64,000 nt of DNA from Leisingera sp. S132. GTDB taxonomy: Bacteria > Pseudomonadota > Alphaproteobacteria > Rhodobacterales > Rhodobacteraceae. Below, in pieces: positions 4,238 through 63,529 of the stretch (the first letter of the stretch is position 1; each line of letters starts with the position of its first letter). The position numbers and the translations under genes are program-made. Location: NCBI RefSeq assembly GCF_025144465.1, contig NZ_CP083553.1, positions 1,300,001-1,364,000 on the forward strand, in the 5' to 3' direction. The notes beneath the pieces were generated by a model. The model ran no database searches and was not told the DNA's origin. It saw nothing but the letters and a program-made list of their open reading frames with translations.

Positions 4238-4305
4238 TTGGGCATGGCGCCGCACCTGCGGTGCGGCGCGCGGCCTGCCCTGGAAGGGCAGGCCGCCGGG
4301 CCCAA
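4238..4305 (+). repeat. Structured palindromic repeat, copy 1 (three-way junction)
   Basis: The element is closed by TTGGGC (4238-4243) pairing with GCCCAA (4300-4305). Inside are two consecutive hairpins. Hairpin 1 is GCGCCGCAC/GTGCGGCGC (4247-4255 with 4261-4269). Hairpin 2 is CGGCCTGCCC/GGGCAGGCCG (4271-4280 with 4286-4295). It lies between the convergent lon and leucine dehydrogenase genes. The same plan recurs at 11374-11431 and 63463-63529 with different bases in the hairpin arms but intact pairing. Apart from this element and the lon terminator I see nothing in the 320-base gap 4064-4383. Confidence 0.75.
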
Positions 4306-4383
4306 TATCCGCATGGTGTCTGGCTCCAGGCCGGACACTTTGCGGGTGCGGGAGTGCATCCGCCGCGCCGCGGACGAGAGGGG

Positions 4384-5439
4384 TCAGGCGGCCTTGCTGG
4401 CCTGTTCCATCTTGGCCTGGACGGTGGCAATTGCCATTTCTGCCGGGCTGACGTCGGCCGCCTTGGCCTGGGTCAGGATTGCCGCCATGGTCTCATCCAG
4501 CGCCTGCAGCTTCTCCGCGACAAAGCCTTCGCGGTCCTTGATCTTCTGAATCTCGGTTGCAACGTTAATGATGCCGCCGCCGTTGGCCACGAAATCGGGC
4601 GCATAAAGAATGCCGCGGGCGTGCAGCGCCGCGCCGTCTTCACCCGTGGCCAGCTGGTTGTTGGCGCCGCCTGCAACGATATCCGCCTTCAGCTGCGGGA
4701 TGGTCTGGGCATTCAGGATGCCGCCGATGGCGCAGGGGGCAAACACGTCGGCCTCGGCGCTGTAGATCTCTGCCAGCGGCACCGCCTTGGCACCGAAGGC
4801 CTCAATGGCTTTCTCGACACGGTCCTCGTCGATGTCGGTGACAACCAGCTTGGCGCCGGCCTCGTGGAGGAACTGGCAGAGGTACCAGCCGACGTGGCCC
4901 AGGCCCTGCACCGATACGGTGACGCCGTCCAGATCGCGGCTGCCGTGCTTGTGGGCGCGGGTGGTGCGAATCGCGTTGAAAATGCCGCGTGCGGTGATCG
5001 GGGAGGGGTCGCCGCTGGCAAACTCGCCATCAGCAAGGCCGGCCGCGAACCGGGTTTCCTCCGCCAGGATGCCCATGTCGGCGGGGCTCATGCCCATGTC
5101 CTCGGCAGTGATGTAGCGGCCGTCCAGGCCCTCAATGGCGCGGGCAAAGGCGCGCAGCAGTTCCGGCGACTTGTCCTTGGCCGGATCGCCGATGATCACC
5201 GCCTTGCCGCCGCCCAGGGTCAGGCCCGCCGCCGCGTTCTTGTAGGTCATGCCTTCGCTCAGGCGTTTGACGTCGGTCAGCGCTTCGTCTTCGCTGGCAT
5301 AGGGGCGCATGCGCAAGCCGCCGGCCGCTGGTCCCAGATGGGTGGAATGCACGGCAATAAAGCCGAGGAGGCCAACAGAAGGCTCCTCGACGCGGTAAAT
5401 CTCTTCGTGGGTGCTGGACGCAACGGCGGTCACTGTCAT
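4384..5439 (-). CDS. ldh: Leucine dehydrogenase (Glu/Leu/Phe/Val dehydrogenase family)
   Basis: Catalyses NAD-dependent oxidative deamination of branched-chain amino acids to 2-oxo acids in the cytosol. The 351-residue length fits leucine dehydrogenases. The N-terminal domain carries G-G-G-K-A-V-I-I-G-D-P with the catalytic lysine, then T-A-E-D-M-G; the C-terminal Rossmann domain has V-Q-G-L-G-H-V-G and V-V-T-D-I-D-E-D, the acidic residues favouring NAD. The start at 5439 is placed by AGGAG 8-9 bases upstream; the frame extends to 5484 without a ribosome site. It is divergent from an Lrp/AsnC regulator 133 bases away, a likely local regulator. The exact substrate (Leu versus Val or Phe) is inferred. 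Confidence 0.88.
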   Translation of the reverse strand: MTVTAVASSTHEEIYRVEEPSVGLLGFIAVHSTHLGPAAGGLRMRPYASEDEALTDVKRLSEGMTYKNAAAGLTLGGGKAVIIGDPAKDKSPELLRAFARAIEGLDGRYITAEDMGMSPADMGILAEETRFAAGLADGEFASGDPSPITARGIFNAIRTTRAHKHGSRDLDGVTVSVQGLGHVGWYLCQFLHEAGAKLVVTDIDEDRVEKAIEAFGAKAVPLAEIYSAEADVFAPCAIGGILNAQTIPQLKADIVAGGANNQLATGEDGAALHARGILYAPDFVANGGGIINVATEIQKIKDREGFVAEKLQALDETMAAILTQAKAADVSPAEMAIATVQAKMEQASKAA

Positions 5440-5571
5440 CTGGATGGCTCCTGCAAAACTTTTCCCGATGATACCAGCGCGCAAACGCCGGTTTTCACCA
5501 AAAGGGCCTCTTTTGCCTGTAACTTTTGGCGGTACACGCCATAATTGGTGGGATTACTAGAGGAAACCTCC

Positions 5572-6027
5572 ATGGATTCGATTGACCGCAAGATTGTCGC
5601 CGCGCTTCAGCGCAACGGGCGGCTGAAGATTTCCGAATTGTCGGAGATGATCGGCCTGTCCCCGACACCCTGTGCCCGCAGGGTTGCAAATCTGGAAGCC
5701 AGCGGTGTGATCGCGGGTTATTCGGCGCGGGTGGACCAGGCCAAGCTGGGTCTGCCGGTCACGATTTTTGTGGCGGTGGAGCTGGAGCGGCAATCCACCG
5801 ATGCGCTGCTGGCTTTCGAGACTGCGGTACGCAAGTTCGACCAGGTGATGGAATGCTACCTGATGACCGGCACGCGGGACATCCTCTTGCGGGTGGTGGC
5901 GGAGGACCTGCCGGATTTCGACCGTTTCCTGGAGGACCGGCTGATGCGGGTGCCCGGGATCCGCAACACAAGGTCCAGCTTCACCCTGCGGACAATGATA
6001 CAACGCGACGCGCTGCCGTCCTGCTGA
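5572..6027 (+). CDS. Lrp/AsnC family transcriptional regulator
   Basis: A 151-residue feast/famine regulator. The N-terminal winged HTH starts M-D-S-I-D-R-K-I-V-A-A-L-Q and includes K-I-S-E-L-S-E-M-I-G-L-S-P-T-P-C; the C-terminal RAM (amino-acid-binding) domain includes V-A-V-E-L and V-M-E-C-Y-L-M-T-G-T-R-D. AGGAA at 5561-5565 supports the ATG at 5572. Being divergent from leucine dehydrogenase suggests it controls that gene in response to branched-chain amino acids, as BkdR and LdhR-type regulators do; this is inferred from position. Confidence 0.92.
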   Translation: MDSIDRKIVAALQRNGRLKISELSEMIGLSPTPCARRVANLEASGVIAGYSARVDQAKLGLPVTIFVAVELERQSTDALLAFETAVRKFDQVMECYLMTGTRDILLRVVAEDLPDFDRFLEDRLMRVPGIRNTRSSFTLRTMIQRDALPSC

Positions 6028-6222
6028 GCGGTTCATGGCGGCGGGAGCGGCGCGGGCTGAACCTGAGGCCCCGCGGCCAACCGCCTTTCAGCCGCAGCCG
6101 CCAGCGTGGCATCGGCAGGCTGTCCAGCTAAAGGCAGCAGCCGCGCTGGCCCTCTGCGAATGCCAAAGACAGCGCCGCGGAAGAAAATGCGCGGGAAGCG
6201 CAAAAATCTGCCAAGGACCCTC

Positions 6223-6251
6223 TTGCGGAGCCCGCACCGGACAGTTAAAAG
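6223..6251 (+). promoter_or_regulatory. Promoter of tRNA-Val(CAC)
   Basis: TTGCGG (6223-6228), a 17-base spacer and TAAAAG (6246-6251), placing transcription start a few bases before the tRNA at 6262. The context CCCTCTTGCG recurs upstream of the second tRNA-Val with the same spacing, which supports the call. The rest of 6028-6222 shows nothing I can name. Confidence 0.55.
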
Positions 6252-6261
6252 CCAGCCTCAC

Positions 6262-6336
6262 GGGTGATTAGCTCAGTGGTAGAGCGCTTCGTTCACATCG
6301 AAGATGTCAGGAGTTCAAATCTCTTATCACCCACCA
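6262..6336 (+). tRNA. tRNA-Val (anticodon CAC)
   Basis: Acceptor GGGTGAT (6262-6268) pairs with ATCACCC (6326-6332), followed by discriminator A and an encoded CCA. The anticodon stem CTTCG/CGAAG encloses TTCACAT, giving CAC, which reads GUG. The T arm carries GTTCAAAT. It is followed by an intrinsic terminator at 6364. Confidence 0.97.
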
Positions 6337-6363
6337 TTATTCAGTTCGTGTTTGCACGGATAA

Positions 6364-6397
6364 GGGCGCTCCCAGGTTTGGTTGAGCGCCCATTTTT
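6364..6397 (+). terminator. Rho-independent terminator after tRNA-Val(CAC)
   Basis: GGGCGCTC (6364-6371) pairs with GAGCGCCC (6384-6391) and runs into ATTTTTGT. It begins 28 bases after the tRNA 3' end. Confidence 0.85.
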
Positions 6398-6546
6398 GTC
6401 TGTTTGTCCGTGTGAGCTGTTGCCTGCAAGACAGGAGTTTTGAGCGGCCGCCGCTGAAAGGCGGCAGATGGCTGCGAGACTGAAGTTCTTGCAACCATCT
6501 GATTTGGAATCTTTCCTTTGGTGTCGGCGCGGATTTCTGGCGCGTA

Positions 6547-7980
6547 TCAGACTGTTGGTGTGAGGCCGAAGTAATCCTGGTAGGGCTCGGGAACGTCCAG
6601 GAACGAGTCGTACTCTGTCGTTGTGTTTCCGTCCGGGGAGAATTCCGTGATTCTCACGTTCCAGGGGTCGCTGCCGTCTCCGTCCACTTCGATTCTCGCG
6701 TGCTGTTCCTGGTTTTGAAACAGGATGATCAATTCATCACCATTGTCATAAGTGGTTTGACGGGCGAGGAGTTCACCGTCCTCGAAAACGGACCCCCTTA
6801 TCGTCCATTCAAAGGCATCTGCGTTATCCTCATGCAGGACTGCGGACAGAACACCGTTGTCGTAAGACGCCGTGGTGACGGTGCCATTGTCATTGGTGGT
6901 GACGCGTTCGGCCGGATTGCCATTCTCATCAACGGTCGTGATGATACTGTGCCAGTCTTTGACGTTCCCGAGGTCATAAAGGTGGACAGAGGTGCTGGTG
7001 CCATCCTCGAACAGTTCACCCTTTACGATGCCGTTGTCAAAATGGGTGAAACGCTTGGCCATCTCACCGGTGTGATCATAGAAGATGTGGATTTCGTCCC
7101 AGATTGCAGCGTTGTCACCGTCTTCCTTGCTGAGGCTGGCCCTGACGCCGTCCTCGAAGCTTTCAGTCATGACAACGCCGTTGTCGTAGCGGGTGAAACG
7201 CATCTCCAATTGGCCATTCTGGTCAAAGTAGGTATCGATTTCATCCCAGTCTACAGCGTTGTCGCAGTCGTTCTGACGAAGGCGGGTTCTGGTGCCTTCT
7301 TCGAACCCCTCGGTTTTGACTATGCCGTTGTCATAATGTGTGAAGCGCGTGTTCAAATCGCCGTAACGGTTGTAGAAGGCTTCAATCAGGTCCCAGTTCT
7401 CAGCGTTGTTGCCGTCGTTCTGACGGAGGCGGGTTCTGATGCCGTCCTCAAACTGTTCTGTTTTAACAATGCCGTTGTCATAGAAGGTGACGCGTTCGTC
7501 CAGTTCGCCGTTGAGGCCGTAAGCCGTGTCAATGCTTTCCCAGCTTGCTGCATTCCACGCGTCGTACTGGGTTGTTGCCAAGCGGGTGCCATGCTGGAAC
7601 TGCTCTTCTTTTATGATGCCGTTGTCGTAGAAGGTAACACGCTCGGCCAATTCGCCAGTGGGGCCGAAAAAAGTTGCAATACCGTCCCAGTCTGCCGCGT
7701 TTTCCGTGTCGTTCTGGATCGTTGCTGAGCGGACACCGTACTCGAACTGTTCTTCCTTGATGATGCCGTTGTCATAGAAGGTGACGCGTCCGGCCAGTTC
7801 GCTGTTCCGGTCATAGCGGGCTTCGATTTCCTCCCAGTTCAGGGCATCGTCCAGGTCCTCTTTCAGAAGCCGGATGAGGTTGCCGTTTTCAAACCACTCG
7901 GTCTGGACGACGCCATTGTCGAATTCAGTGACGCGTGAGACCAGCACTCCGTTGGTGTCGTATTCGGTTGAGGCAGACAT
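6547..7980 (-). CDS. Tandem 49-residue repeat protein of unknown function
   Basis: The 477-residue protein is made almost wholly of nine units of about 49 residues (147 bp). Their shared start reads R-V-T-F-Y-D-N-G-I-I-K-E-E-Q-F, and most continue N-A-x-x-W-D-x-I and end in G-E-L-x-x. It has no signal peptide or membrane segment and is very acidic. The D-N-G followed by an aromatic near each unit start resembles short beta-hairpin repeats (MORN or YwqK-like), but I cannot assign a family. The last 45 residues are non-repetitive. The gene lies alone between two tRNA-Val genes with lower GC than its neighbours, possibly acquired. AAGAGA precedes the ATG. A hairpin (CAGATGG...CCATCTG, 6466-6502) lies just beyond the stop. 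Confidence 0.75.
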   Translation of the reverse strand: MSASTEYDTNGVLVSRVTEFDNGVVQTEWFENGNLIRLLKEDLDDALNWEEIEARYDRNSELAGRVTFYDNGIIKEEQFEYGVRSATIQNDTENAADWDGIATFFGPTGELAERVTFYDNGIIKEEQFQHGTRLATTQYDAWNAASWESIDTAYGLNGELDERVTFYDNGIVKTEQFEDGIRTRLRQNDGNNAENWDLIEAFYNRYGDLNTRFTHYDNGIVKTEGFEEGTRTRLRQNDCDNAVDWDEIDTYFDQNGQLEMRFTRYDNGVVMTESFEDGVRASLSKEDGDNAAIWDEIHIFYDHTGEMAKRFTHFDNGIVKGELFEDGTSTSVHLYDLGNVKDWHSIITTVDENGNPAERVTTNDNGTVTTASYDNGVLSAVLHEDNADAFEWTIRGSVFEDGELLARQTTYDNGDELIILFQNQEQHARIEVDGDGSDPWNVRITEFSPDGNTTTEYDSFLDVPEPYQDYFGLTPTV

Positions 7981-8191
7981 GATAAATCTCTTTTAGATTG
8001 CAATGCGGGACCGCTGATGCGCGCTGAATCGGGCAGAAGTATGGCTGGGGCATCGTGCTTGGCTGCTGCCTGGAGAATTTCGGAATTTATTGTTTTGCTC
8101 CCCTGCAGCGCTGCCGGGAAAAGCGCTGGTTCGGGCTTCCGGTTCACCTGTTCATCAGCTACCAATTCAGCAGGCAGAGCAGGAGGTTGAC

Positions 8192-8761
8192 ATGCAGTTC
8201 CCAAAAATCTGGCTGCTGCGGCACGGGCAAACCGAATGGAACGCCGAGCGCCGCATTCAGGGGCAGCTGGAATCGCCGCTGAGCGCGCTGGGGGTGGAAC
8301 ACGCCAGGCGCCAGGCTGCACTTATGGTACCGGTCCTGATGCAGGGCCCGGCCTGTTATGCATCGCCCCTCGGACGGGCGCAGCAGACCGCGGATATTGC
8401 ACTGGGCGGTGCGCCGTTTGTGACCGATGCGCGGCTGGCAGAGGCTTATGCCGGGGCATTTCAGGGGATGACAATGGACGAGGTCGCGGCGGAGTACCCG
8501 GATATCCACGGCGCCAATCCGCACAATCTGGACCTGTTCTGCGAAGCGCCGGGCGGCGAGGGATACGGCAGTTTCCATGCCCGCATCCTCGACTTCATGC
8601 AGTCGCTGACCGGCCCGTCGGTGGTGGTGGCGCATGGGCTCTTGGGGCAGGTGATGCGCGGTATCGTCTGCGGGCTGAGCCGCGAGCGGATGGCGGCGCT
8701 GCCAAACGGGCAGGGCTGTGTTTATGTGCTGGAAAACGGAGCAGAAACGGTTTTGGAATAA
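8192..8761 (+). CDS. Histidine phosphatase family protein (phosphoglycerate mutase-like)
   Basis: A 189-residue member of the phosphohistidine-intermediate phosphatases. The N-terminal L-L-R-H-G-Q-T-E-W-N places the phosphorylated histidine at residue 11; later elements are the substrate-loop region A-S-P-L-G-R-A-Q-Q-T, L-A-E-A-Y-A-G, and the second histidine in V-V-A-H-G. AGGAGG at 8181-8186 sets the start at 8192, so the longer frame from 8090 is not used. The substrate (sugar phosphate, cobalamin precursor or other) cannot be told from sequence. It is transcribed toward the tRNA cluster. Confidence 0.92.
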   Translation: MQFPKIWLLRHGQTEWNAERRIQGQLESPLSALGVEHARRQAALMVPVLMQGPACYASPLGRAQQTADIALGGAPFVTDARLAEAYAGAFQGMTMDEVAAEYPDIHGANPHNLDLFCEAPGGEGYGSFHARILDFMQSLTGPSVVVAHGLLGQVMRGIVCGLSRERMAALPNGQGCVYVLENGAETVLE

Positions 8762-8796
8762 GCGGCCTGGATGGGCAAAAAAACTGCAAAGCCCTC

Positions 8797-8825
8797 TTGC
8801 GCTGCCCGGCGGCATTGTCTAAATC
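8797..8825 (+). promoter_or_regulatory. Promoter of tRNA-Val(TAC)
   Basis: TTGCGC (8797-8802), a 17-base spacer and TAAATC (8820-8825), 10 bases before the tRNA. It shares the CCCTCTTGCG context with the tRNA-Val(CAC) promoter. Confidence 0.5.
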
Positions 8826-8835
8826 CCCGCTCATC

Positions 8836-8911
<76 letters not shown>

Positions 8912-9044
8912 TCCCTTCTTGTTCAATCCGCGATGTTTGCCCGCACAAGTCTTTGTGGTAGCGGCGTTTTTCTTTACGTTTCAGCGCGTTGTCCGGGCCT
9001 GCGCATTTTTTTCGGGGAAAGTTCTGAAAAAGGCAAAACACCGC

Positions 9045-9073
9045 TTGACGGGTCAAGGGGTGGAGAATATTAC
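9045..9073 (+). promoter_or_regulatory. Promoter of the tRNA-Asp cluster
   Basis: TTGACG (9045-9050), a 17-base spacer and TATTAC (9068-9073), with the first tRNA-Asp starting at 9112. It is the only strong promoter pattern in the cluster, so the three tRNAs are probably one transcript. The remaining 8912-9044 shows no gene. Confidence 0.65.
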
Positions 9074-9111
9074 AGCCCAACATTCGGCAGCGATGCCTGA
9101 ATGTGCAGCGG

Positions 9112-9188
9112 GCGGTTGTAGCTCAGTTGGTTAGAGTACCGGCCTGTCACGCCGGGGGTCGCGGGTTCGAGCCCCGTCAACCGCGCCA
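9112..9188 (+). tRNA. tRNA-Asp (anticodon GTC), copy 1
   Basis: Acceptor GCGGTTG pairs with CAACCGC, then G and an encoded CCA. The anticodon stem CCGGC/GCCGG encloses CTGTCAC, giving GTC. It is identical to the two following copies. Confidence 0.97.
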
Positions 9189-9270
9189 CTGCTGCGCCCT
9201 TTCCCAGGGCTTAACAGGGACCGCCCCGGAGGGGAACAGGGCCGGAGACGGTCCGCCGCAAGGCGAAAAT

Positions 9271-9347
9271 GCGGTTGTAGCTCAGTTGGTTAGAGTACCG
9301 GCCTGTCACGCCGGGGGTCGCGGGTTCGAGCCCCGTCAACCGCGCCA
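9271..9347 (+). tRNA. tRNA-Asp (anticodon GTC), copy 2
   Basis: Same sequence as copy 1, with encoded CCA; the spacer before it contains CCGCCCCGGAGGGG, shared with the next spacer. Confidence 0.97.
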
Positions 9348-9428
9348 CTTTCGCCCGTTTCCCTGGCGTTTCAGGGACCGCCCCGGAGGGGATCAAAGGC
9401 CGGAAACGGCTAGCCGAAAGGCCCATGC

Positions 9429-9505
9429 GCGGTTGTAGCTCAGTTGGTTAGAGTACCGGCCTGTCACGCCGGGGGTCGCGGGTTCGAGCCCCGTCAACCG
9501 CGCCA
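9429..9505 (+). tRNA. tRNA-Asp (anticodon GTC), copy 3
   Basis: Same sequence as copies 1 and 2, with encoded CCA. No clear terminator follows in the 43 bases before the convergent DUF4440 gene. Confidence 0.97.
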
Positions 9506-9548
9506 CTTTCTCTTGGACAGTGATGTCACACCCCTCCAGAGTCAGGTG

Positions 9549-10358: not shown

Positions 10359-11237
10359 TCAGGGCGGCGGCAGCGGCACAAGGAAATCCAGCAGGGCTGC
10401 AGCGGTCTCATGCGGCGCGCTGTCGATGAAGAAATGACCGCCGGGCACGCTGCGCGCTGTCAGGTGCTGCAGGCGGGGCGTCCAGGCGCCGGCCACATCA
10501 TAGGCCCGGGCCATGGCGCCATCGGCGCCGTATAGCACGAGGGCCGGGCAGTGCAGCTGACGGTCCAAGTCGCGGGCGTCGTCGTGGAAGTCCACTTCTA
10601 TTGCCGCCCGGTAGTCGTTGCACATGGCGTGCACGCAGGCCGGGTCCGCCCAGGCGCGCCGGTAGGCGGCCAGCGCATCAGGCGGGAAATCGGACAGCGC
10701 CGCGCCGCCCCAGCCCAGCAGGCAGCTTTCGAAATAGGCTTGCGGACCGGCGCTGATCATCCGCTCCGGCAGCGGCGCGGGCTGGGCCAGGAAGAACCAG
10801 TGGTAATAGGCGCGGGCGACCTGCTGTGTCAGCTGATCCAGCAGAAGGTGGGTCGGGATGATGTCCATCACGGTGAGGCTGGCGACGGCTTCGGGGGCGT
10901 CCAGCGCCAGCCGGTGCGCGGTGCGGCCGCCGCGGTCATGGCCCGCGAGGTGACAACGCGGATATCCCAGCGCCTGCATCAGTGACAGCTGGTCGGCAGC
11001 CATGTTGCGAAAGCTCATGGCCTCCACGCCTTCCGGTTTGGAGCTGGCGCCATAGCCGCGCAGATCGGCTGTCACTACGGTGAAATGACGGGCAAGAAGC
11101 GGGGCGGTGTCTTCCCACATCTCTTTGGTTTGGGGAAACCCGTGCAGCAGCAGAAGCGGCGGGCCATTGCCGCGGCGGGTATAGGCGATCTGCTGGCCGT
11201 TCACCTGATGAATGCCGGTCTCAATGGCAGCTGGCAT
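10359..11237 (-). CDS. Alpha/beta hydrolase, fluoroacetate (haloacetate) dehalogenase type
   Basis: The 292-residue protein has the hydrolase fold with oxyanion motif H-G-F-P-Q. The nucleophile elbow is G-H-D-R-G-G-R, with Asp101 in place of Ser, as in epoxide hydrolases and haloacetate dehalogenases. The fluoroacetate dehalogenase set is present: Arg102 and Arg105 (carboxylate binding), His146-Trp147 and Tyr209 (halide pocket), Asp125 and His268 (charge relay). The spacing agrees with the characterised Rhodopseudomonas enzyme (Asp110, His155, Trp156, Tyr219, His280). GGGAG six bases upstream sets the start at 11237. The natural substrate is unknown. Confidence 0.85.
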   Translation of the reverse strand: MPAAIETGIHQVNGQQIAYTRRGNGPPLLLLHGFPQTKEMWEDTAPLLARHFTVVTADLRGYGASSKPEGVEAMSFRNMAADQLSLMQALGYPRCHLAGHDRGGRTAHRLALDAPEAVASLTVMDIIPTHLLLDQLTQQVARAYYHWFFLAQPAPLPERMISAGPQAYFESCLLGWGGAALSDFPPDALAAYRRAWADPACVHAMCNDYRAAIEVDFHDDARDLDRQLHCPALVLYGADGAMARAYDVAGAWTPRLQHLTARSVPGGHFFIDSAPHETAAALLDFLVPLPPP

Positions 11238-11373
11238 ATGTGTCTCCCTTGGCTGACGGACGCGCGCGTATTGGAGCCAGAGCCGCGGTCCGAAGCAAGC
11301 CTGCCGCTGCGTTTCGGTAAGGGGGAGTGCTCCCGCGGCTTGGGGCGGCATCAAAGATGCCGCGCAGCAAGCC

Positions 11374-11431
11374 TTGGGCCCGGCGCCGTGCGGGGCACGG
11401 CGCGCGCCGCCTGCGGCGGCGCCAGGCCCAA
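11374..11431 (+). repeat. Structured palindromic repeat, copy 2 (three-way junction)
   Basis: TTGGGCC (11374-11380) pairs with GGCCCAA (11425-11431). Hairpin 1 is GCGCCGTGC/GCACGGCGC (11383-11391 with 11395-11403) with loop GGG. Hairpin 2 is GCGCCGCC/GGCGGCGC (11404-11411 with 11415-11422). It lies in the 287-base gap between the hydrolase and dipeptidase genes; nothing else is evident there. Confidence 0.75.
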
Positions 11432-11524
11432 CGGGAAGTGGGGTTCGTCAGAGCACCGGTGACGGGCGGGAGTTCGCCCCTTTCTGCAGAAGCGGGGCGG
11501 ATGTTTTGACCGCCCCGCTGTTGC

Positions 11525-12916
11525 TTACTTCTGCGTCAGCGCATCCAGAATGCGGGCCCAGGACCGGATGCCCTTGTGGAAGCTCTTCAGGTCATACTTT
11601 TCGTTCGGGGAGTGAATGGCGTCATCATCGTTGGCAAAGCCTGCCAGCATCGATTCCATGCCCAGGATCGACTTGAAGAAACCCGCGATCGGGATCGAGC
11701 CGCCCATGCCGCAGAACACCGCTTCGCGCTGCCATTCGTCCGAGAGTGCGGCGCGGGCGGCAGTGAATTCGGGGCGGGTGATGTCCATGACAGAGGCCCT
11801 GGAACCTTCGAGATCATTGTCCCAGACCACCTTGCAGTCGGGTTTCAGCTGCGCCGCCACATGGTTGCGGATCTTCACCCGCAGCGCGTCCGGGTCCATG
11901 TCGCCGACCAGGCGGCAGGTGATCTTGCAGTGTGCCTCTGACGGGATCACGGTCTTGGAGCCGGCGCCGTTGTAGCCGCCCCAGAGGCCGTTCACTTCCA
12001 GCGTCGGGCGGGCCCATTGCTGTTCCAGCACCGAGCGGTCCTTCTCGCCATGCGCCTGAGTGTAGCCGGCATTGTCGAGGTAGTCCTTCTCGTCGAAACC
12101 GCAGCCTTCCCACTGGCGCAGCTGGTCCCCGGGCACCTCATGCACGCCTTCATAGAAGCCGTCGACAGCAACCTTGCCGGTCTCTTCGTCATAGAAGGAG
12201 GCGACGATGCGGCTGAGCTCGCGCAGGGGATTGAGGCCGGGGCCGCCGTAGTGGCCGGAATGCAGGTCGATGCGGGGGCCGATGAGGGTGAACTCATCCT
12301 TCAGCATGCCCCGCAGCTGCGAGGAGATCGACGGCACCCCGCGCGACACCATGGAGGTGTCGCAGATCAGGGCGATGTCGGCTTTCAGCTCTTCGGCGTT
12401 GGCCTCCATGAAGGGGATAAGCGAGGGGGAGCCGCTTTCCTCTTCGCCTTCGAAGAAGAAGGTGATGCGGCAGGGCAGGGAGCCGTTGACGGCCTTCCAG
12501 GCGCGGCACGCCTCAACAAAGGTCATCAGCTGGCCCTTGTCGTCCGAAGAGCCGCGGCCGCGGATCACGGTGCCGTTCGGGGTTTCCTCCAGTTGCGGTT
12601 CAAACGGCGGCGTTTGCCACAGGTTCAGAGGGTCGACCGGCTGCACATCATAATGGCCATAAAACAGCACATGCGGCGCATCCGTGTTTTCCTCGCCGAC
12701 GTGTCCGACCACCATCGGGTGGCCAGGGGTCACCCGCTTTTCCGCCTTGATACCGATGGAGTTCAGGTCGGCGACCAGCCAGTCGGCGGCCTTGTCGCAT
12801 TCCGCCTTGTAGGCCGGGTCGGTGGAAACCGACTGAATCCGCAGCAGCTCCATCAGCCGTTCGGTTGCGGCGTCCAGCTCTGCGTCGATCCGGTCCAGAA
12901 CATCATTCAGTGCCAT
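11525..12916 (-). CDS. M20 family metallopeptidase (dipeptidase)
   Basis: A 463-residue cytosolic zinc exopeptidase of the M20/M25/M40 class, hydrolysing dipeptides or related amide bonds. Metal and catalytic motifs are visible in order: F-Y-G-H-Y-D-V (His88, Asp90), R-G-S-S-D-D-K-G-Q (bridging Asp near 125), E-G-E-E-E-S-G-S (general-base and ligand Glu near 157-160), and a distal histidine in H-S-P-N-E-K-Y. A dimerisation lid domain sits between about 210 and 370. AGGAGA precedes the ATG. The substrate is not predictable. Confidence 0.93.
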   Translation of the reverse strand: MALNDVLDRIDAELDAATERLMELLRIQSVSTDPAYKAECDKAADWLVADLNSIGIKAEKRVTPGHPMVVGHVGEENTDAPHVLFYGHYDVQPVDPLNLWQTPPFEPQLEETPNGTVIRGRGSSDDKGQLMTFVEACRAWKAVNGSLPCRITFFFEGEEESGSPSLIPFMEANAEELKADIALICDTSMVSRGVPSISSQLRGMLKDEFTLIGPRIDLHSGHYGGPGLNPLRELSRIVASFYDEETGKVAVDGFYEGVHEVPGDQLRQWEGCGFDEKDYLDNAGYTQAHGEKDRSVLEQQWARPTLEVNGLWGGYNGAGSKTVIPSEAHCKITCRLVGDMDPDALRVKIRNHVAAQLKPDCKVVWDNDLEGSRASVMDITRPEFTAARAALSDEWQREAVFCGMGGSIPIAGFFKSILGMESMLAGFANDDDAIHSPNEKYDLKSFHKGIRSWARILDALTQK

Positions 12917-17135: not shown

Positions 17136-17215
17136 TTTCATCTTTCCAGAAATACTCCGGGGCTGCCGTTGGTGCGCCATTGGTTCAAGCCCAATGGCGG
17201 CGGGCAGAGCCCCGG
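17136..17215 (+). repeat. AATACTCCGG element with hairpin, copy 1
   Basis: TTTCATCTTTCCAGAAATAC and then TCCGGGG begin 11 bases after ispG. The hairpin that follows has CCGGGGC (17157-17163) pairing with GCCCCGG (17209-17215), and inside it CGCCATTGG/CCAATGGCG (17075+100 to 17083+100, that is 17175-17183, with 17191-17199). It lies between convergent ispG and dsbA-like genes and probably ends transcription from one or both sides. The same leader sequence is at 46553-46580 on the other strand and in shorter form at 55610. Confidence 0.65.
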
Positions 17216-46552: not shown

Positions 46553-46580
46553 ACCCCGGAGTATTTGCGGAAAGATGAAA
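46553..46580 (-). repeat. AATACTCCGG element, copy 2
   Basis: On the minus strand TTTCATCTTTCCGCAAATAC and then TCCGGGGT. It is followed on that strand by GCGCC/GGCGC and GGGGC/GCCCC hairpins (46515-46548). It follows the minus-strand VOC gene end, as copy 1 follows ispG. Confidence 0.65.
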
Positions 46581-55608: not shown

Positions 55609-55609
55609 C

Positions 55610-55644: not shown

Positions 55645-55657
55645 CTCTGCTGCTGGC

Positions 55658-57678: not shown

Positions 57679-59126
57679 GCGCTGCGTTCTGCGGCGGGCA
57701 GGTCCCAATCCCCGCCGGTCAGGGCCGCGTCCGAGGCGGCGGGCCAGCCGCTGGCCGTCACCGCATCCTGCAGCGCGGCATAACACGCGGGATCAATGCC
57801 GGAACCAGCCAGATCATCCATGATGGCATAGGTCTTCTCCAGCGGCAGCGCCGCGCGGTAGGGGCGTTCGGCGGTCAGCGCGTCAAAAATATCCGCCACC
57901 GCCATCACCCGCATCTCCTGGGTCAGCTGGCTGGCATCCATCCCGTAGGGATAGCCCTTGCCGTCCAGCCGCTCATGATGCGCGGCGCTGACATCCGCCA
58001 GGTCCCGGAAGGCGTGGATCCGGCTCAGCACCTCATGGCCCAGTATTGGGTGCTGTTTCATCAGGGCAAACTCCTCCTCTGTCAGCTTGCCGGGCTTGTC
58101 CAGGATGGTGTTTGAGATCCCCAGCTTGCCAATGTCATGCAACAGCGCCCCGCGCACCATCCAGCGGCGGCGCCCGGGGGCGTAGCCCAGCTGGTCGCAG
58201 ATCAGCCCGGTATAGCGCGCCACCCGCTGCGAATGGCCGTGGGTAAACGGGCTCTTGGCGTCGATCACCAGCGAGAACGCCCGGGCGATCTCATCCAGAT
58301 ATTCCTCGTCGACGGCATGGATATGCTGTGCCTGCGGAGTGGCAAAGACCTCTGCTTCCAGCCCGGGATCCTGCAGATCCGCCAGAAACCGCGGCCGCCG
58401 GATGACCGCGGTGAAGACCGGCACCAGATTCGGATCGAACCAGGTTCCTGCGCGCCGCTCCAGCTCCTCCGCCGCGGCCTCAGCGCCCAGGTCGGTGGCA
58501 AAGACATCCGTCACCTGCGCCATCAGAGCGATGCGTGCAAACAGCGGGATCGCATCGCCCGTCAGCCCCAGCGGCTGGCCGCCGCCGTCCCAATGCTCAT
58601 CCAGGCAGGCAATGCCCTCTGCCACATCGTCCGAAAACCGCATCTGCCGGGCAATCGCCGCACCGCGGTTGCAGCGGGTTTCGATCAGCTCACCGGAGAT
58701 TTTGCCGTTTCTGGCCAGCACGTGCCTCAGCGTCTTCAGCCGGGTCCAAGGTGCAGCCGCGGCGGCGGTGTTGCGCCACAGGAAGCCAAGCCCCTGGCGC
58801 AGGCCGCTGACGGTCTTGAAGCTGCGTTTAAAGGCCAGGTCATCGGTCATGTACAGCTGGCAGATCCGCGCCGCGTTGGAACTGCAGCCCAGATCTTTCA
58901 TCAGCAGCGTGAAATAGAGGTCCGAGCGCGCCTGCGGCGCCAGTCCAAGTTCGGCTGCCACCTGCATGCCGATCCAGCAGCAGCGGACACAATGGCCTTC
59001 GGGCTGGCCTTCGGTCAGATCCAGCGCATGGCTGAGCGCACCCAGCAGCTCGCCAAGGCGCAAGGTATCCTGCGGCGCGGCATCCGCGGCCTGACCGGGA
59101 CTGAATGGGGATACGTAATGTGTCAT
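57675..59126 (-). CDS. HD-GYP domain cyclic-di-GMP phosphodiesterase
   Basis: A 483-residue protein. The C-terminal HD-GYP domain about 290-450 has L-L-H-D-I-G-K-L-G-I, K-Q-H-P-I-L-G-H, A-A-H-H-E-R-L-D-G-K-G-Y-P-Y-G and the following D-I-F-D-A-L-T. The N-terminal half appears to be a second, degenerate HD-GYP copy (D-E-H-W-D-G-G-G-Q-P-L-G), which has lost its HD pair and has E-G-H-C-V-R-C-C-W. HD-GYP enzymes hydrolyse c-di-GMP and favour motility. No sensor domain is seen other than this. Confidence 0.9.
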   Translation of the reverse strand: MTHYVSPFSPGQAADAAPQDTLRLGELLGALSHALDLTEGQPEGHCVRCCWIGMQVAAELGLAPQARSDLYFTLLMKDLGCSSNAARICQLYMTDDLAFKRSFKTVSGLRQGLGFLWRNTAAAAAPWTRLKTLRHVLARNGKISGELIETRCNRGAAIARQMRFSDDVAEGIACLDEHWDGGGQPLGLTGDAIPLFARIALMAQVTDVFATDLGAEAAAEELERRAGTWFDPNLVPVFTAVIRRPRFLADLQDPGLEAEVFATPQAQHIHAVDEEYLDEIARAFSLVIDAKSPFTHGHSQRVARYTGLICDQLGYAPGRRRWMVRGALLHDIGKLGISNTILDKPGKLTEEEFALMKQHPILGHEVLSRIHAFRDLADVSAAHHERLDGKGYPYGMDASQLTQEMRVMAVADIFDALTAERPYRAALPLEKTYAIMDDLAGSGIDPACYAALQDAVTASGWPAASDAALTGGDWDLPAAERSA

Positions 59127-59239
59127 GGGCCTTCGGCAGGGAAAATGCGGAAGGCCCATGACAGCACGGACAGGATTAACCTGCCCTTACCCGGCGCAGG
59201 ATAGGGGTGGGGACTCTGCGCCGGATTTTCTTAAAATGT

Positions 59240-59300
59240 CCGGGGCCGCCGGATGGCAGCCCCTTGCTCAGCAGTGGGGGCCGCCTGCAGGCCGCCCCGG
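59240..59300. terminator. GC-rich structured region after minE
   Basis: CCGGGGC (59240-59246) pairs with GCCCCGG (59294-59300), enclosing CCCC/GGGG and CCTGCAGG stems. On the minus strand it is followed by ACATTTTAAGAAAAT. It most likely ends the minCDE operon. Confidence 0.45.
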
Positions 59301-59312
59301 GGCACCCCGGCC

Positions 59313-59576
59313 CTAATTCACACCCAGCTTGCCTGGGAATTCGATATTGATCTCCAGGCTCGACAGCTCGTCGCCGCGCTCCATGCGGATGTCGATCGCC
59401 TCGTCGCCGATCTGCATGTGGCGGCGGATCACGTCCAGGATCTCGCGCTGCAGCTGCGGCAGGCAGTCCGGGCGGGCACCGCCGCTGCCGCTGCGCTCAT
59501 GCGCCAGCAGGATCTGCAGCCGTTCCTTGGCGGTGCTGGCCGAGGCCTTGCGGGGGCGGAGGGAAAATCCGAACAT
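59313..59576 (-). CDS. minE: Cell division topological specificity factor MinE
   Basis: An 87-residue protein that makes MinCD oscillate to keep FtsZ at mid-cell. Marks: the amphipathic N-terminus (M-F-G-F-S-L-R-P-R-K-A-S-A-S), the anti-MinCD segment A-K-E-R-L-Q-I-L-L-A-H-E-R and the C-terminal dimer domain (L-Q-R-E-I-L-D-V-I-R-R-H). It lies 3 bases after minD in the minCDE operon. Confidence 0.95.
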   Translation of the reverse strand: MFGFSLRPRKASASTAKERLQILLAHERSGSGGARPDCLPQLQREILDVIRRHMQIGDEAIDIRMERGDELSSLEINIEFPGKLGVN

Positions 59577-59579
59577 CGC

Positions 59580-60428
59580 TTACACCGCCCGCCGGAACAG
59601 CCGCTGCAGCAAGCCGCGGCGCGGGTCGGCGGCAATCCGCATTTCGATCTGCTCACCGATCAAACGGCCCACCGCGTCCTCATAGGCGGCAGCAGCTGCG
59701 GACGGGTCATCCAGCACCACCGGCACGCCGAGATTGGAGGCGCGCAGTACCGCCTTGCTCTCAGGGATGATCCCCAAGAGCGGCACCGCCAGCACCTCCA
59801 GCACGTCCTCCACCGTCATCATTTCGCCACTGTCGACGCGGGCCTTGTCATGGCGGGTGATCAGCACCTGCGCCTTCACCGGCTCTGCGCCGGTCTTGCC
59901 GGCCCGGTCGGTGATGCTGTTCAAGAGCCCCAGCACCCGGTCGCTGTCGCGCACCGAGGACACCTCGGGGTTGGTGACCACGATGGCCTCATCGGCGAAA
60001 TGCATCGCCATCTGGGCGCCGCGCTCGATCCCTGCCGGGCTGTCGCAGATGATGTAGTCGAACTCTTTGCGCAGTTCATCCAGCACCTTTTCGACCCCCG
60101 CCTTGGTCAGTGCGTCCTTGTCGCGGGTCTGCGAGGTCGGCAGCACCGCCAGGTTCTCCAGCCGCCGGTCGCGGATCAGCGCCTGCTTCAGCTTGGCATC
60201 GCCCTGAATCACGTTGATGAAGTCAAAGACCACCCGGCGCTCGCATCCCATGATCATGTCCAGGTTGCGCAATCCGACGTCGAAATCGATCACCACCGTC
60301 TTGTGCCCGCGCCGCGCCAGCTCAGCGCCCACCGCCGCCGAAGTTGTGGTCTTGCCCACGCCGCCCTTGCCCGAGGTGACAACGATCACCCGGCCCATCG
60401 GTTCTTCCAAAGTCAGGTCCTTGCTCAT
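59580..60428 (-). CDS. minD: Septum site-determining ATPase MinD
   Basis: A 282-residue deviant-Walker-A ATPase that recruits MinC to the membrane. Marks: V-V-T-S-G-K-G-G-V-G-K-T-T-T near 18-31, I-D-F-D-V-G-L-R-N-L-D, C-D-S-P-A-G-I-E-R-G, and the amphipathic C-terminal membrane helix (L-L-Q-R-L-F-R-R-A-V). The minC stop and minD ATG overlap by one base (TAATG). Confidence 0.96.
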   Translation of the reverse strand: MSKDLTLEEPMGRVIVVTSGKGGVGKTTTSAAVGAELARRGHKTVVIDFDVGLRNLDMIMGCERRVVFDFINVIQGDAKLKQALIRDRRLENLAVLPTSQTRDKDALTKAGVEKVLDELRKEFDYIICDSPAGIERGAQMAMHFADEAIVVTNPEVSSVRDSDRVLGLLNSITDRAGKTGAEPVKAQVLITRHDKARVDSGEMMTVEDVLEVLAVPLLGIIPESKAVLRASNLGVPVVLDDPSAAAAAYEDAVGRLIGEQIEMRIAADPRRGLLQRLFRRAV

Positions 60429-61177
60429 TAAAGTGCCTCCACACACAGCCGGCCGTCGCGCAGGAATACCTGTGCTGCGCGGTTCAAAAGCTCCGGCTCC
60501 AAATTCTCGTTTGTCCGGTATAAGCCCGCCACCGCCAGCAGCTCCGCATCCAGCCGCTGGCAGAAGATGCGGGCGCTCTCGTCGCCCTCGGCGCCGGCCA
60601 TGGCACGGCCGCGCAGCAGGCCGTAGACATGGATGTTGCCGCGCGCGATCAGCTCCGCGCCGGAGCTGACAGGCCCGACCACCACCAGGTCGCCGCCCTC
60701 CGCCACCACGGTCTGGCCGGAGCGCACCGGCCGGGTGATCACAACGTTCTGGGGCGGGCGCAATTTCTTGGGGATTTCCCGGCGGGTACCGGGGCCGGTG
60801 TTCAGCGGCGCGTCCTTGCCGCTCGCCAGCGTGATCAGCCCGGCGTCCTCTGCTGCCGCGGCCTGCGCGGGGGTGGCGTTCTGCACCCCGAAGACCGCCA
60901 GATCGCGGCTGCGCAGGCTGTCGGCCAGCGCCCGGATCTCGGCAGGGCGGCTCAGCCCCGGGGCCTGCGCCAGGTCCAGGATCAGCGGCGCGCCGTCAAA
61001 GAAATGCGGGCTCCAGCGCAGCTGCGCGTCCAGCGCGGCATAGAACGCCTGGTCCAGCGGCCCGTCTTCGGGGCGCAAGGCGACAGCGGTGAAATACCGC
61101 CCGCGGATCTGGAACGGCTTCACGCTTGCGGCAGGCGCTCTGCCACGCGGTTTGATGTCTTGATGCGGCACGCTCAC
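60428..61177 (-). CDS. minC: Septum site-determining protein MinC
   Basis: A 249-residue FtsZ inhibitor. The N-terminal FtsZ-binding domain lies about 18-120 (P-F-Q-I-R-G-R-Y-F-T-A-V-A-L) and the C-terminal beta-helix that binds MinD about 145-249 (V-V-A-E-G-G-D-L-V-V-V-G-P-V-S-S-G-A-E and G-N-I-H-V-Y-G-L-L-R-G). It is the first gene of minCDE. Confidence 0.93.
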   Translation of the reverse strand: MSVPHQDIKPRGRAPAASVKPFQIRGRYFTAVALRPEDGPLDQAFYAALDAQLRWSPHFFDGAPLILDLAQAPGLSRPAEIRALADSLRSRDLAVFGVQNATPAQAAAAEDAGLITLASGKDAPLNTGPGTRREIPKKLRPPQNVVITRPVRSGQTVVAEGGDLVVVGPVSSGAELIARGNIHVYGLLRGRAMAGAEGDESARIFCQRLDAELLAVAGLYRTNENLEPELLNRAAQVFLRDGRLCVEAL

Positions 61178-61378
61178 GCGATGCTCCTGCTCGGAAATGG
61201 CGGCCTTGTTTTGCCGCGGCTTTTTCTCTTGGGTAGCGTCAGGCGGGCAGGCCGTTCAACCGCAGCCGGTCAGGGTCGGCGGACATGCGCCTGCCGCCGT
61301 GCCTGGTGGCGGATTTCCGCAGATGATCTGCCGGGGGTTGCGCAGAAAACGGTTGCCGTCCTGGCGGTGGCGCGGCGC

Positions 61379-62845
61379 CTAGAGCGCCAGGGGCGCAGAC
61401 CGGCCGGAGGTTTCCAGCTCCCAGGCGGCTGACCAGCTTTCACCGTTGCGCTCCAGAACCAGATAGTTCCGCTCGGCGGCATAGCGCCCGGTCTGGCCGG
61501 GGATCCTGCGGATGCGGATGGGGTGGCCGGGCAGAGGCGCGTCGCCCAGCCGCGACAGCATCCCCAGCACCCTGGCCCAGGCCCGCGGCGGCGCCCGGTG
61601 GGAAATGCCCGAGGCCACCAGCTGGTGCAGCAGCTTGCCGCCGCCAAGCGTCATCTCGCCGCGCGTGGCCAGGTGGATCTCGCCGGAAAGGGCTGTCACC
61701 TGCTGGCCGTCCTGCGCCGCCATGTCCCGTACCAGCCGCAGCATCCGCCGCCAGGAGGCCCGGTGCGCCCGGCTCTGCCATTGATCGCGCAGGTCGTCCT
61801 CGTATTTCTGCATCCGGGGGGTCAGCACCATCAGCAGCTCCAGCAGCGACAGCCGCGGCCCCAGCAGCGGCACGCTCGACAGGATCAGGCTGCGCCCGGC
61901 AAAGCTCTGTTTTGCCGCTGCCTTCATCATCCGCCAGCCGCCCCGCGCCATCACCCGGCGCCGGCTGCGTTCAGAGCGCAGGTCGGGGGCCAGCAGCCGC
62001 AGACCCGGCGCTTCGATGCGCCAGCCCAGGTGGCTGCCTGCGGGATCGGCAAAACGGCCAGGCAGGTCCCCATCGCAGCAGCCGTGCTGAAACAGCAGCG
62101 CCGCCTCCCGCGCAGCGGCAAACAGTGTCTGTCCGACCAGGGAATAGGTGCGCGAACGGCGCAGGGATCCCCAGCCGTCGCAGATGTCGTGGTCGTCCCA
62201 TTGCATCAGCGACGGCACCCGGGCGGCGATCCAGGCAAATTCCGGCGCGGCATAAACCGCCAGATAACGCTGCAGGAACCCCTCCCGCAGGTGGCGGCGC
62301 AGATCGTCCAGCTCTTCGGGTGCAGGATCGCGGGGGAGGCGGTCCGGCCAGTCTTCGCTCAGGGGGTGGCCGTGTGTCACCTCATCCGCATAGACCTGAT
62401 CACCGCCATGCAGCAGCAGCGAGAAGGGCTGTTCCGCGTGTTCCGCACCCATCCGCGCCCACATCGCGTTGCGTTCGGCACCGTCGCGGTCCAGGTCGCC
62501 ATGCTCCTCTCCGTTGCAGGAGGCATAGGCGATCCGCAGGCCGCCGCCAAAACCGCCTGCCAGCGCATAGCGCATGCCGTTCCACTGATAGGCAGAGGGC
62601 TGGTCGGCAGGCAGGCTGAACCGCGCCCTGAGCACCGTGCACGCGCTGTAGTCCGCCAGCGGCTCGGGCTGCGCCGCGCCATCGTCCAGCAGCAGCGGCG
62701 GCAGGGTGGCGCCTTTCGGGGCAATGAACAGGGCCGCCAGAAACATCCGGCCATCACGCAGATCATCGAGGATCAGGATGGGGCCGGTGATTGCGTTTAC
62801 GGCGGGTCCGCCGGCGGGGCCTGTTGTCCGGGTTCTGCTGCTCAT
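61379..62845 (-). CDS. PhoD-like metallophosphatase
   Basis: A 488-residue protein of the alkaline phosphatase D fold: I-A-Y-A-S-C-N-G-E near 105, L-H-G-G-D-Q-V-Y-A-D near 140, M-Q-W-D-D-H-D-I-C-D-G-W-G-S near 215 and A-L-S-G-E-I-H-L near 405 form the dimetal site. No signal peptide is visible, so it may be cytosolic. The start at 62845 (M-S-S-R-T-R-T-T-G) is chosen because the longer frame to 63274 overlaps a divergent gene region. Substrate unknown. Confidence 0.82.
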   Translation of the reverse strand: MSSRTRTTGPAGGPAVNAITGPILILDDLRDGRMFLAALFIAPKGATLPPLLLDDGAAQPEPLADYSACTVLRARFSLPADQPSAYQWNGMRYALAGGFGGGLRIAYASCNGEEHGDLDRDGAERNAMWARMGAEHAEQPFSLLLHGGDQVYADEVTHGHPLSEDWPDRLPRDPAPEELDDLRRHLREGFLQRYLAVYAAPEFAWIAARVPSLMQWDDHDICDGWGSLRRSRTYSLVGQTLFAAAREAALLFQHGCCDGDLPGRFADPAGSHLGWRIEAPGLRLLAPDLRSERSRRRVMARGGWRMMKAAAKQSFAGRSLILSSVPLLGPRLSLLELLMVLTPRMQKYEDDLRDQWQSRAHRASWRRMLRLVRDMAAQDGQQVTALSGEIHLATRGEMTLGGGKLLHQLVASGISHRAPPRAWARVLGMLSRLGDAPLPGHPIRIRRIPGQTGRYAAERNYLVLERNGESWSAAWELETSGRSAPLAL

Positions 62846-63035
62846 ACCGTCCCAGCACCTAGGTGCGCCTTGCACAGCATTCAACCGCCGGGCGCATTGA
62901 GCCGGGTCATGGCCCGCGACTGCGGCAGAATTGCCAGTGGCCCTTCCGCGGCCGCCGTGGTCTGAGTGGCCGCGCGTGATTTCCCTGCCGCCTTCGGTCC
63001 GGCCGCGGCGGCTGAATTTTTTAAGGAGTTTCGAT

Positions 63036-63404
63036 ATGCAATGGAGCCTTCTTGCCGCTGCGGTGCTGGCCGCCCTATGGATGCTGGTGCATGCATTTGC
63101 GGGCGGGCGCGAATGCGCCCGGCCGCTGGCGCAGGACCGGCAGCTGCCCGACGCAGCGCGCGAAACAATGCTGCTCTGCTGGCACATGGTCACCGGCTTT
63201 CTTGGCCTGATGGCCCTGTTCCTGTTCCTCGGCGCCCGCGGGGCAGCCGGGATGGCGCTGGCGGGGACGGCCATGGCGGCGGTGGCAGCGCTGGTGGGCC
63301 TGCTGCTGCCGCTGCTGCGCCGGGCAGGTTACCGCCTGCTGCCCCAGGGCTGGCTGTTCGTGCCGGTTGCCGGCTTGGGTGCCTGGGGTCTTTGGGGCGG
63401 CTGA
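63036..63404 (+). CDS. Small four-helix membrane protein
   Basis: A 122-residue hydrophobic protein starting M-Q-W-S-L-L-A-A-A-V-L-A-A-L-W with AAGGAG seven bases upstream. Helices are near 3-20, 50-68, 70-90 and 103-118; the first loop holds G-G-R-E-C-A-R-P-L. I do not recognise the family. It is divergent from the PhoD-like gene and convergent with the phzF-like gene. Confidence 0.72.
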   Translation: MQWSLLAAAVLAALWMLVHAFAGGRECARPLAQDRQLPDAARETMLLCWHMVTGFLGLMALFLFLGARGAAGMALAGTAMAAVAALVGLLLPLLRRAGYRLLPQGWLFVPVAGLGAWGLWGG

Positions 63405-63462
63405 GGACAGCAAAGGCGCCCTCCCGCCCGTCCGGCCAGCATTGTAAATGCCAGCCTGCCGG

Positions 63463-63529
63463 TTGGGCCCGGCGCCGGAGCAAGAGCTCCGGCGCGCATC
63501 CTGCCCGGCGGGCAGGATGCCAGGCCCAA
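63463..63529 (+). repeat. Structured palindromic repeat, copy 3 (three-way junction)
   Basis: TTGGGCC (63463-63469) pairs with GGCCCAA (63523-63529). Hairpin 1 is GCGCCGGAGC/GCTCCGGCGC (63472-63481 with 63486-63495). Hairpin 2 is GCATCCTGCCC/GGGCAGGATGC (63496-63506 with 63510-63520). It lies between a small membrane-protein gene and the convergent phzF-like gene. Confidence 0.78.

What the first reader, a model, noticed from the sequence alone, without database searches (positions are those of the whole stretch)
4238..63529. Dispersed three-way-junction element with covarying hairpins (three copies)
Copies at 4238-4305, 11374-11431 and 63463-63529 share closing bases TTGGGC...GCCCAA and internal GGCGCC and GGCGCGC blocks, but the two inner hairpins have different sequences and lengths (9-11 bp) while staying fully paired. 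All are intergenic, after gene ends, in the same orientation. Preserved pairing with changing bases is the mark of selection on structure, as in REP/BIME-type elements or a structured RNA. I do not know a described family with this exact plan.
Basis: partly seen in the sequence, partly recalled or inferred. Interest (0 to 1): 0.72.

Follow-up and report, generated by a model that had tools for sequence, protein, structure and literature searches.

The report
Paired two-hairpin repeats at gene ends
Between many genes of this marine bacterium sits a short repeated stretch that folds into several hairpins whose letters differ from copy to copy while the folding stays intact, which suggests that the fold itself does a job at the ends of genes.

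Summary
The three copies are real, but each is only the middle of a larger element of 143-160 bp bounded by CTCCCGC...GCGGGAG. Each element is two inverted units of about 70-85 bp: an outer arm hairpin, the word TTGGGC, then an inner hairpin. A unit model gives 94 hits in the genome (related plasmids: Leisingera) and 51-138 in each of 21 genomes of the genus; elements are single units or inverted pairs, mostly after gene ends. The outer arm recurs in 33 of 295 family genomes with changing, compensated stems. No Rfam family matches at its curated score, no RAYT gene was found in the own genome, and elements 1 and 2 sit at orthologous places in most genomes of the genus examined. Mismatches in the arm stems are strand-asymmetric (A.C against G.T), so one strand probably acts single-stranded; terminator-like hairpins used as a control behave as expected. 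Most likely it is a structured RNA signal at gene ends (transcript barrier or 3'-end protection); this step is inferred. It resembles BIMEs built from REPs, but tested defining features of CGTC-REPs are not met. A new variant of a known kind.

The parts
4195..4354 (.). Element 1, complete: CTCCCGC ... GCGGGAG, two inverted units
4195..4269 (-). Element 1, left unit (alpha-like arm), given on the strand of model R2
   Evidence: R2 hit 60.4 bits
4270..4354 (+). Element 1, right unit (beta-like arm)
   Evidence: R2 hit 29.8 bits
4238..4305 (.).
11330..11472 (.). Element 2, complete
11330..11403 (-). Element 2, left unit (beta-like arm)
   Evidence: R2 hit 53.4 bits
11404..11472 (+). Element 2, right unit (alpha arm)
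   Evidence: R2 hit 60.4 bits
11374..11431 (.). Element 2, middle
63421..63577 (.). Element 3, complete
63421..63495 (-). Element 3, left unit (alpha arm)
   Evidence: R2 hit 61.9 bits
63496..63577 (+). Element 3, right unit (beta arm)
   Evidence: R2 hit 28.0 bits
63463..63529 (.). Element 3, middle
1586..4063 (+). lon protease gene left of element 1; followed by its own intrinsic-terminator-like hairpin before the element
   Evidence: Pfam Lon_C
4384..5484 (-). Glu/Leu/Phe/Val dehydrogenase gene, convergent with lon
   Evidence: Pfam
10359..11354 (-). alpha/beta hydrolase reading frame (longest frame; its first bases overlap element 2, true start probably further in)
   Evidence: Pfam
11525..12916 (-). 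M20 peptidase gene upstream of element 2 on its strand
   Evidence: Pfam
62931..63404 (+). reading frame of a possible small membrane protein ending before element 3 (no Pfam match)
63616..63999 (-). PhzF-like gene (cut by the window end) ending after element 3
   Evidence: Pfam PhzC-PhzF

Best explanation
It is a dispersed, vertically kept family of two-hairpin units, CTCCCGCC - arm hairpin - TTGGGC - NN - inner hairpin, present singly or as inverted pairs at gene ends. Shown: the architecture, the copy number, compensatory change, orthologous occupancy in the genus, preference for convergent gene ends, and a strand bias in tolerated arm mismatches. Inferred: the unit acts as RNA read on the strand inner hairpin - GCCCAAC - arm - GGCGGGAG, where the arm stays folded through G.U pairs. 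I think it ends or blocks transcripts that run towards the 3' end of a neighbouring gene, or protects the 3' end that forms there. An inverted pair would do this for both directions.
For: R2 finds both halves of each window element in inverted orientation, 94 unit hits in the own genome and 51-138 in each of the 21 genomes of the genus. Covariation: 66 and 90 cells changed on both sides against 16 and 25 in shuffles; the outermost arm pair is Watson-Crick in 141 of 145 arms against 68 expected. Strand test: isolated arm mismatches on the CTCCCGCC strand are 33 A.C to 4 G.T in 132 arms of other genomes and 31 to 11 in 90 own arms; 375 terminator-like hairpins used as control give 90 G.T to 33 A.C on the RNA strand. 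The opposite strand of the arm folds better in 126 of 132 arms. Context: of 57 elements with both neighbours called, 32 convergent, 23 codirectional, 2 divergent; 48 gene neighbours in the window give 11, 27, 10. Element 1: both units at the orthologous place in 14 of 20 lon loci, with 13 of 69 pairs changed on both sides.
Against: No RNA data. T runs are rare: 4 T within 8 nt after the inner hairpin in 2 of 32 single units, and within 12 nt after GCGGGAG in 4 of 90 units. lon has a terminator-like hairpin of its own. Gene context does not favour the better-folding strand: a gene ends towards the CTCCCGC end in 25 of 29 single units with that neighbour called, towards the inner hairpin in 24 of 31; of 8 codirectional single units 5 put the CTCCCGCC strand on the mRNA. 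The inner hairpin gives no strand signal (911 Watson-Crick, 0 G.T, 1 A.C, 9 other) and folds slightly better on the CTCCCGCC strand. At the third arm position mismatches lean the other way, 14 G.T to 7 A.C, and own alpha-like arms alone are not significant, 9 to 18. ssDNA or a strand-biased mutation process could give the same bias.
Confidence: 0.45

Rival explanations
1. REP/BIME-type mobile DNA: the unit is (or was) the single-stranded hairpin substrate of a transposase, spread as inverted pairs, and is now left without its enzyme.
For: Inverted pairs, single units, two arm types with 22 of 29 pairs mixed and none of two beta arms, and intergenic location resemble REP dimers (PMC3733652, sections 14 and 15 read). 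One strand acting as ssDNA would explain the strand bias as well as RNA does.
Against: No Y1 transposase match in the own genome and none in 15 of 21 genomes of the genus; other transposase families were not searched. No target duplication seen by eye at the ends. Elements 1 and 2 are orthologous in most genomes of the genus examined. The losses seen look like internal deletions that leave remnants. The one near-identical pair of copies lies in a duplication of at least 1.5 kb.
Confidence: 0.3
2. DNA-level element: cruciform or protein-binding site (gyrase, nucleoid protein) between convergent genes.
For: The inner hairpins are almost perfectly Watson-Crick paired with no G.T in 921 positions, as expected if duplex palindromes matter.
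Against: The isolated arm mismatches are strand-asymmetric, which a double-stranded or cruciform DNA reading does not predict.
Confidence: 0.12
3. Ordinary bidirectional intrinsic terminators of a G+C-rich genome.
For: Position: 23 of the 25 single units with a gene ending towards their CTCCCGC end lie within 40 nt of its stop codon, and many elements lie between convergent genes.
Against: T runs are rare; a fixed multi-hairpin plan is not needed for that; lon has a separate terminator-like hairpin.
Confidence: 0.1
4. Chance G+C-rich palindromes.
For: The genome is G+C-rich (window 63%), and the bare word pair TTGGGC...GCCCAA is no more frequent than its reversed control.
Against: Reversed control of the longer pattern 0, shuffle z-scores, covariation controls.
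Confidence: 0.01

Closest known systems
CGTC-tagged REPs (Di Nocera et al. 2013, PMC3733652; abstract, sections 6, 14, 15 and found passages read)
   Same: Alphaproteobacterial, no dedicated transposase, inverted dimers often of unlike partners, between convergent or codirectional genes and close after stop codons; a part of the alpha arms carries CGTC before the hairpin; some dimers there have stem-loops in the spacer.
   Different: REPs are given there as 20-40 bp, CGTC ones with an 8-9 bp stem starting in A/T pairs, a 4-5 nt loop and mostly a CCA tail. Here the unit is about 70-85 bp with two hairpins, the arm stem is interrupted and of free sequence, and many arms lack CGTC.
GTAG-REPs, BIMEs and REPINs with RAYTs
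   Same: Palindromic units in inverted pairs, intergenic.
   Different: No RAYT match in the own genome; stems vary freely between places. A GTAG tag was not searched for separately.
ERIC/IRU, RIME, BOX, RUP (recalled)
   Same: Palindromic or modular repeats in intergenic DNA.
   Different: As I recall they are recognised by conserved primary sequence; not tested here.
Integron attC sites (recalled)
   Same: Single-stranded hairpins with variable paired stems; GTTGGGC and GCCCAAC fit the core-site words of attC as I recall them.
   Different: The words face the other way round, beta arms mostly do not have the full word, and elements are dispersed at gene ends, not in cassette arrays.

Membership tests
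CGTC-REP | unpaired CGTC tag at one end of the stem | tested here: not met
   CGTC is present in a part of the alpha arms and not in the usual beta arm
CGTC-REP | 8-9 bp stem with A/T in the first two pairs and a CCA tail | tested here: not met
   In arms that do carry CGTC the first pair is any Watson-Crick pair and the second is mostly a mismatch; the arm is followed by TCCCGTTGGGC, which the pattern required
CGTC-REP | inverted dimers between convergent or codirectional genes | tested here: met
   29 pairs; 55 of 57 elements with both neighbours called are not divergent
GTAG-REP/BIME with RAYT | a RAYT (Y1 transposase) in the genome | tested here: not met
   No Y1_Tnp match in the own genome, 6 of 21 genomes of the genus have one
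GTAG-REP/BIME with RAYT | GTAG tag beside the hairpin | not tested
   No separate search made; the units were found by other words
MITE/transposon | terminal inverted repeats with target duplication and empty sites | tested here: inconclusive
   Inverted ends yes; no target duplication seen by eye in the 30 rows; losses seen leave remnants; no strain-level comparison made
Rfam RNA family | match at the curated score | tested here: not met
   Only tRNAs in the window; in 8 element loci with E up to 5 only a sub-threshold sot2652 match touches the edge of one element (L005)
intrinsic terminator | G+C-rich hairpin followed by a T run | tested here: not met
   Four T within 8 nt after the inner hairpin in 2 of 32 single units; within 12 nt after GCGGGAG in 4 of 90 units
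structured RNA | transcription of the folding strand | not testable with these tools
   no RNA-seq

The most novel reading that the evidence does not exclude
A class of structured RNA gate at gene ends, spread over many genera of the Rhodobacteraceae: short joining words are fixed and read by a protein or by RNA polymerase/Rho, while both hairpins only need to be paired. It stops transcripts from one gene running into the 3' end of the next, and the inverted pair is a two-way gate whose two units can fold apart or join into one four-way structure through CTCCCGC/GCGGGAG and TTGGGC/GCCCAA.
Probability: 0.25. Interest if true: 0.78.

Novelty: new variant of a known kind. Interest (0 to 1): 0.56.

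Why it matters
If the strand test is right, an intergenic repeat family that would be filed as a REP or a MITE is under selection as a single strand with free stem sequence. That gives about 100 natural, varied copies per genome on which to test how convergent genes in G+C-rich bacteria keep their transcripts apart. The G.T/A.C strand test itself can be applied to REPs in general.

Tried and rejected
Rfam at curated and loose thresholds gave nothing over the elements apart from one sub-threshold edge overlap. RAYT as mobiliser: no match in the own genome. The 80 named loci fetched by Lon held no middle and no CTCCCGCC...TTGGGC unit by these exact patterns; some loci are short. The bare pattern TTGGGC...GCCCAA was no better than its reversed control (39 rows a strand against 47), so the closing word alone means little; only the longer plan does. 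Class-wide R2 search: 1 of 240 genomes, the own one; with so many genomes only 20 candidates each are scored, and even the own genome drops from 94 hits to 20, so this is weak evidence of absence. The same holds for R1 in 120 family genomes (25 own hits instead of 88). A kink-turn or tandem G.A reading of the arm's inner loop was considered from the letters and not tested. Seven literature searches with Rhodobacteraceae, Roseobacter, Rhodobacterales, Dinoroseobacter, Leisingera or Phaeobacter, and general REP terms (listings seen) found no description of this element; subscription papers and figures are not held, and the species list of the REP paper is a figure I could not see (its text names no Rhodobacter, Roseobacter, Ruegeria, Rhodobacterales, Silicibacter, Jannaschia, Paracoccus or Phaeobacter). 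PMC12306157: passages only.

On checking this report against the calls I corrected: the per-genome tally of the strand test (12 of 14, not 14 of 18), the claim that no T run follows the inner hairpins (2 of 32), and the status of the MITE and GTAG rows.

Full report
Observation. In the 4.69 Mb genome the strict pattern TTGGGCNNGGCGCCN{34,50}GCCCAA gives 9 places and none for its reversed control. In the 61 genomes (own included) it matches in all 21 of the genus and in none of 16 other genomes of the family and 24 of other families. The bare closing word with an open spacer is not above its control.

Anatomy. Of the 19 middles printed with their flanks, all but one (L107) have an outer arm on each side and CTCCCGC or a close variant on the left and GCGGGAG on the right. 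One search lists complete elements of 125-185 bp (30 rows, some the same element twice). Some middles hold a single perfect hairpin of about 39 bp and some hold two hairpins with a spacer of some 15-30 bp. Searches show many half elements. The repeating unit is therefore CTCCCGCC - arm - TTGGGC - NN - inner hairpin, and the three-way junction is two units meeting head to head. A covariance model of the unit (R2, 45 own units) applied to the window finds the six halves of the three elements (E 9.7e-10 to 0.0018), then two matches at E above 0.5, one of them inside element 1. Caution: I collected units by these words and the family arms by a pattern holding them, so the constancy of the words in those sets is partly by construction; the stems were not constrained.

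Number and spread. From model R1 and patterns I extracted 90 units in the own genome, grouped by script as 29 inverted pairs and 32 single units; some 'single' ones have a partner that my filter missed (L101, L104 and L105). R2 gives 94 hits at E up to 0.001 in the own genome and 51-138 in each of the 21 genomes of the genus; only 150 candidates a genome are scored. In 120 genomes of the family R1 hits 5, own included (strict filters). The alpha-arm pattern (21 fixed bases) hits 33 of 295 family genomes, own included, with 87 places in one genome; the reversed control hits once in all. In 32 loci, most from other genera, the layout looks the same by eye and the inner hairpins have other letters (not scored). 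R2 over 240 genomes of the class hits only the own one, with weak sensitivity. The genus is probably Leisingera: 16 of 24 plasmid records matching an own plasmid stretch bear that name, at about 84% identity.

Covariation. On 23 middles: 96.2% of cells paired, 66 cells changed on both sides against 16.3 in shuffles; the closing stem is invariant there because the pattern asked for it. On 45 own alpha units: 93.8% paired, 90 double-changed cells against 25.1, covariation score 0.303 against 0.084, no shuffle as high. In 145 distinct arms from the family search the outermost arm pair, next to CGTC, is Watson-Crick in 141 (G-C 93, T-A 22, A-T 20, C-G 6) against 67.9 expected; the second position pairs in 48 (28.7 expected) and the third in 27 (27.1 expected), so those two form a mismatched loop (the list was cut by the tool). 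At one orthologous place (element 1, 14 complete copies) 13 of 69 pairs show changes on both sides, ten in the two arms and three in the middle, whose letters change little between orthologues.

Orthology. In 20 lon loci of the genus (a 21st genome has only the start of lon at a contig end) a script finds both units of element 1 in 14, one unit in 2 and none in 4; two of these 4 keep visible remnants. In 21 M20 peptidase loci both units of a pair lie within 1.5 kb of the gene in 11, one in 5, none in 5; of these 5 one is cut by a contig end, one is an internal deletion that left both outer ends and one is a degenerate copy. For element 3, of 8 regions picked by their similar middles, 6 align in the flank too. 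This looks like vertical inheritance with decay, not recent insertion. The one near-identical pair of copies noticed lies in a duplication of at least 1.5 kb.

Which strand. If a stem is selected as single-stranded RNA or DNA, G.U (G.T) mismatches are tolerated on that strand and appear as A.C on the other. Isolated mismatches flanked by Watson-Crick pairs, counted on the CTCCCGCC strand, are 4 G.T to 33 A.C (30 other) in 132 arms outside the own genome; A.C is in excess in 12 of the 14 genomes that have either kind, G.T in 2. In 90 own arms they are 11 to 31 (50 other); beta arms alone 2 to 13, alpha-like arms alone 9 to 18, which is not significant. An earlier count with other settings gave 1 to 25 inside the stems, but 14 G.T to 7 A.C at the third arm position, inside the mismatched loop. 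As a control, 375 distinct terminator-like hairpins of the fetched DNA give 90 G.T to 33 A.C on the RNA strand. The arm folds better on the opposite strand in 126 of 132 arms and in all 30 genome means; with the arm interior alone in 108 (worse in 15) and 26 of 30. The acting strand is therefore likely inner hairpin - GCCCAAC - arm - GACGGGCGGGAG. Copies are related, so p-values (1e-6 and 0.003) are too small. The inner hairpins give no signal (911 Watson-Crick, 0 G.T, 1 A.C, 9 other) and fold slightly better on the CTCCCGCC strand (55 of 90, worse in 32).

Context. With an ORF caller trained on the window, 57 of 61 elements have both neighbours called: 32 convergent, 23 codirectional, 2 divergent; the window's 48 neighbouring pairs, whatever their gap, are 11, 27, 10 (Fisher p 0.0007 for convergent, 0.011 for divergent). 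The caller misses small genes; it put element 3 among the codirectional ones. Of 29 single units whose CTCCCGC-side neighbour was called, 25 have a gene ending towards that side, 23 of them within 40 nt; on the inner-hairpin side 24 of 31 have a gene ending towards the unit. Many single units thus fill a short gap between two stop codons, and context does not tell which strand acts. Of 29 pairs, 22 join an alpha and a beta arm, 7 two alpha arms, none two beta arms (arm type by a simple rule on the letters).

Mechanism. Shown: a plan with free stems, strand asymmetry of the arms, vertical persistence and gene-end location. Inferred: an RNA element at transcript ends, ending or blocking transcripts or protecting 3' ends, two-way when paired. 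Against it stand the rarity of T runs (2 of 32 single units after the inner hairpin, 4 of 90 units after GCGGGAG) and the separate lon terminator-like hairpin, 5 of 8 codirectional single units with the other strand on the mRNA, and the lack of RNA data. A stranded mobile element acting as ssDNA remains a serious rival.

Known families. Rfam has no match at curated score (loose search). CGTC-REPs (PMC3733652: abstract, sections 6, 14, 15 and passages read) share location, inverted dimers and the lack of a transposase, but their short stem with A/T pairs and CCA tail is not met. Seven literature searches listed no description of this element.

Noticed in passing
window 17137-17158 (-) and 46558-46579 (+); similar letters beside units in L186, L190, L193, L213, L216, L251, L263, L266: A second repeated motif near gene ends, GGAGTATTT..GGAAAGATGAA; 2 matches in the window against 0.01 expected, and close to the inner hairpin of several single units, also in other genera.
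   Followed up: partly
G000:C1:2131344 and 3176911 (L005, L008): A duplicated stretch of at least 1.5 kb at 99.7% identity in inverted orientation carries one element in each copy.
   Followed up: partly
window 9112-9502: Three tRNA genes with equal scores about 160 bp apart, with a fourth at 8836-8908.
   Followed up: no
L009 2513-2585 (-): A strong SorX sRNA match (84.1 bits) about 1 kb from an element.
   Followed up: no
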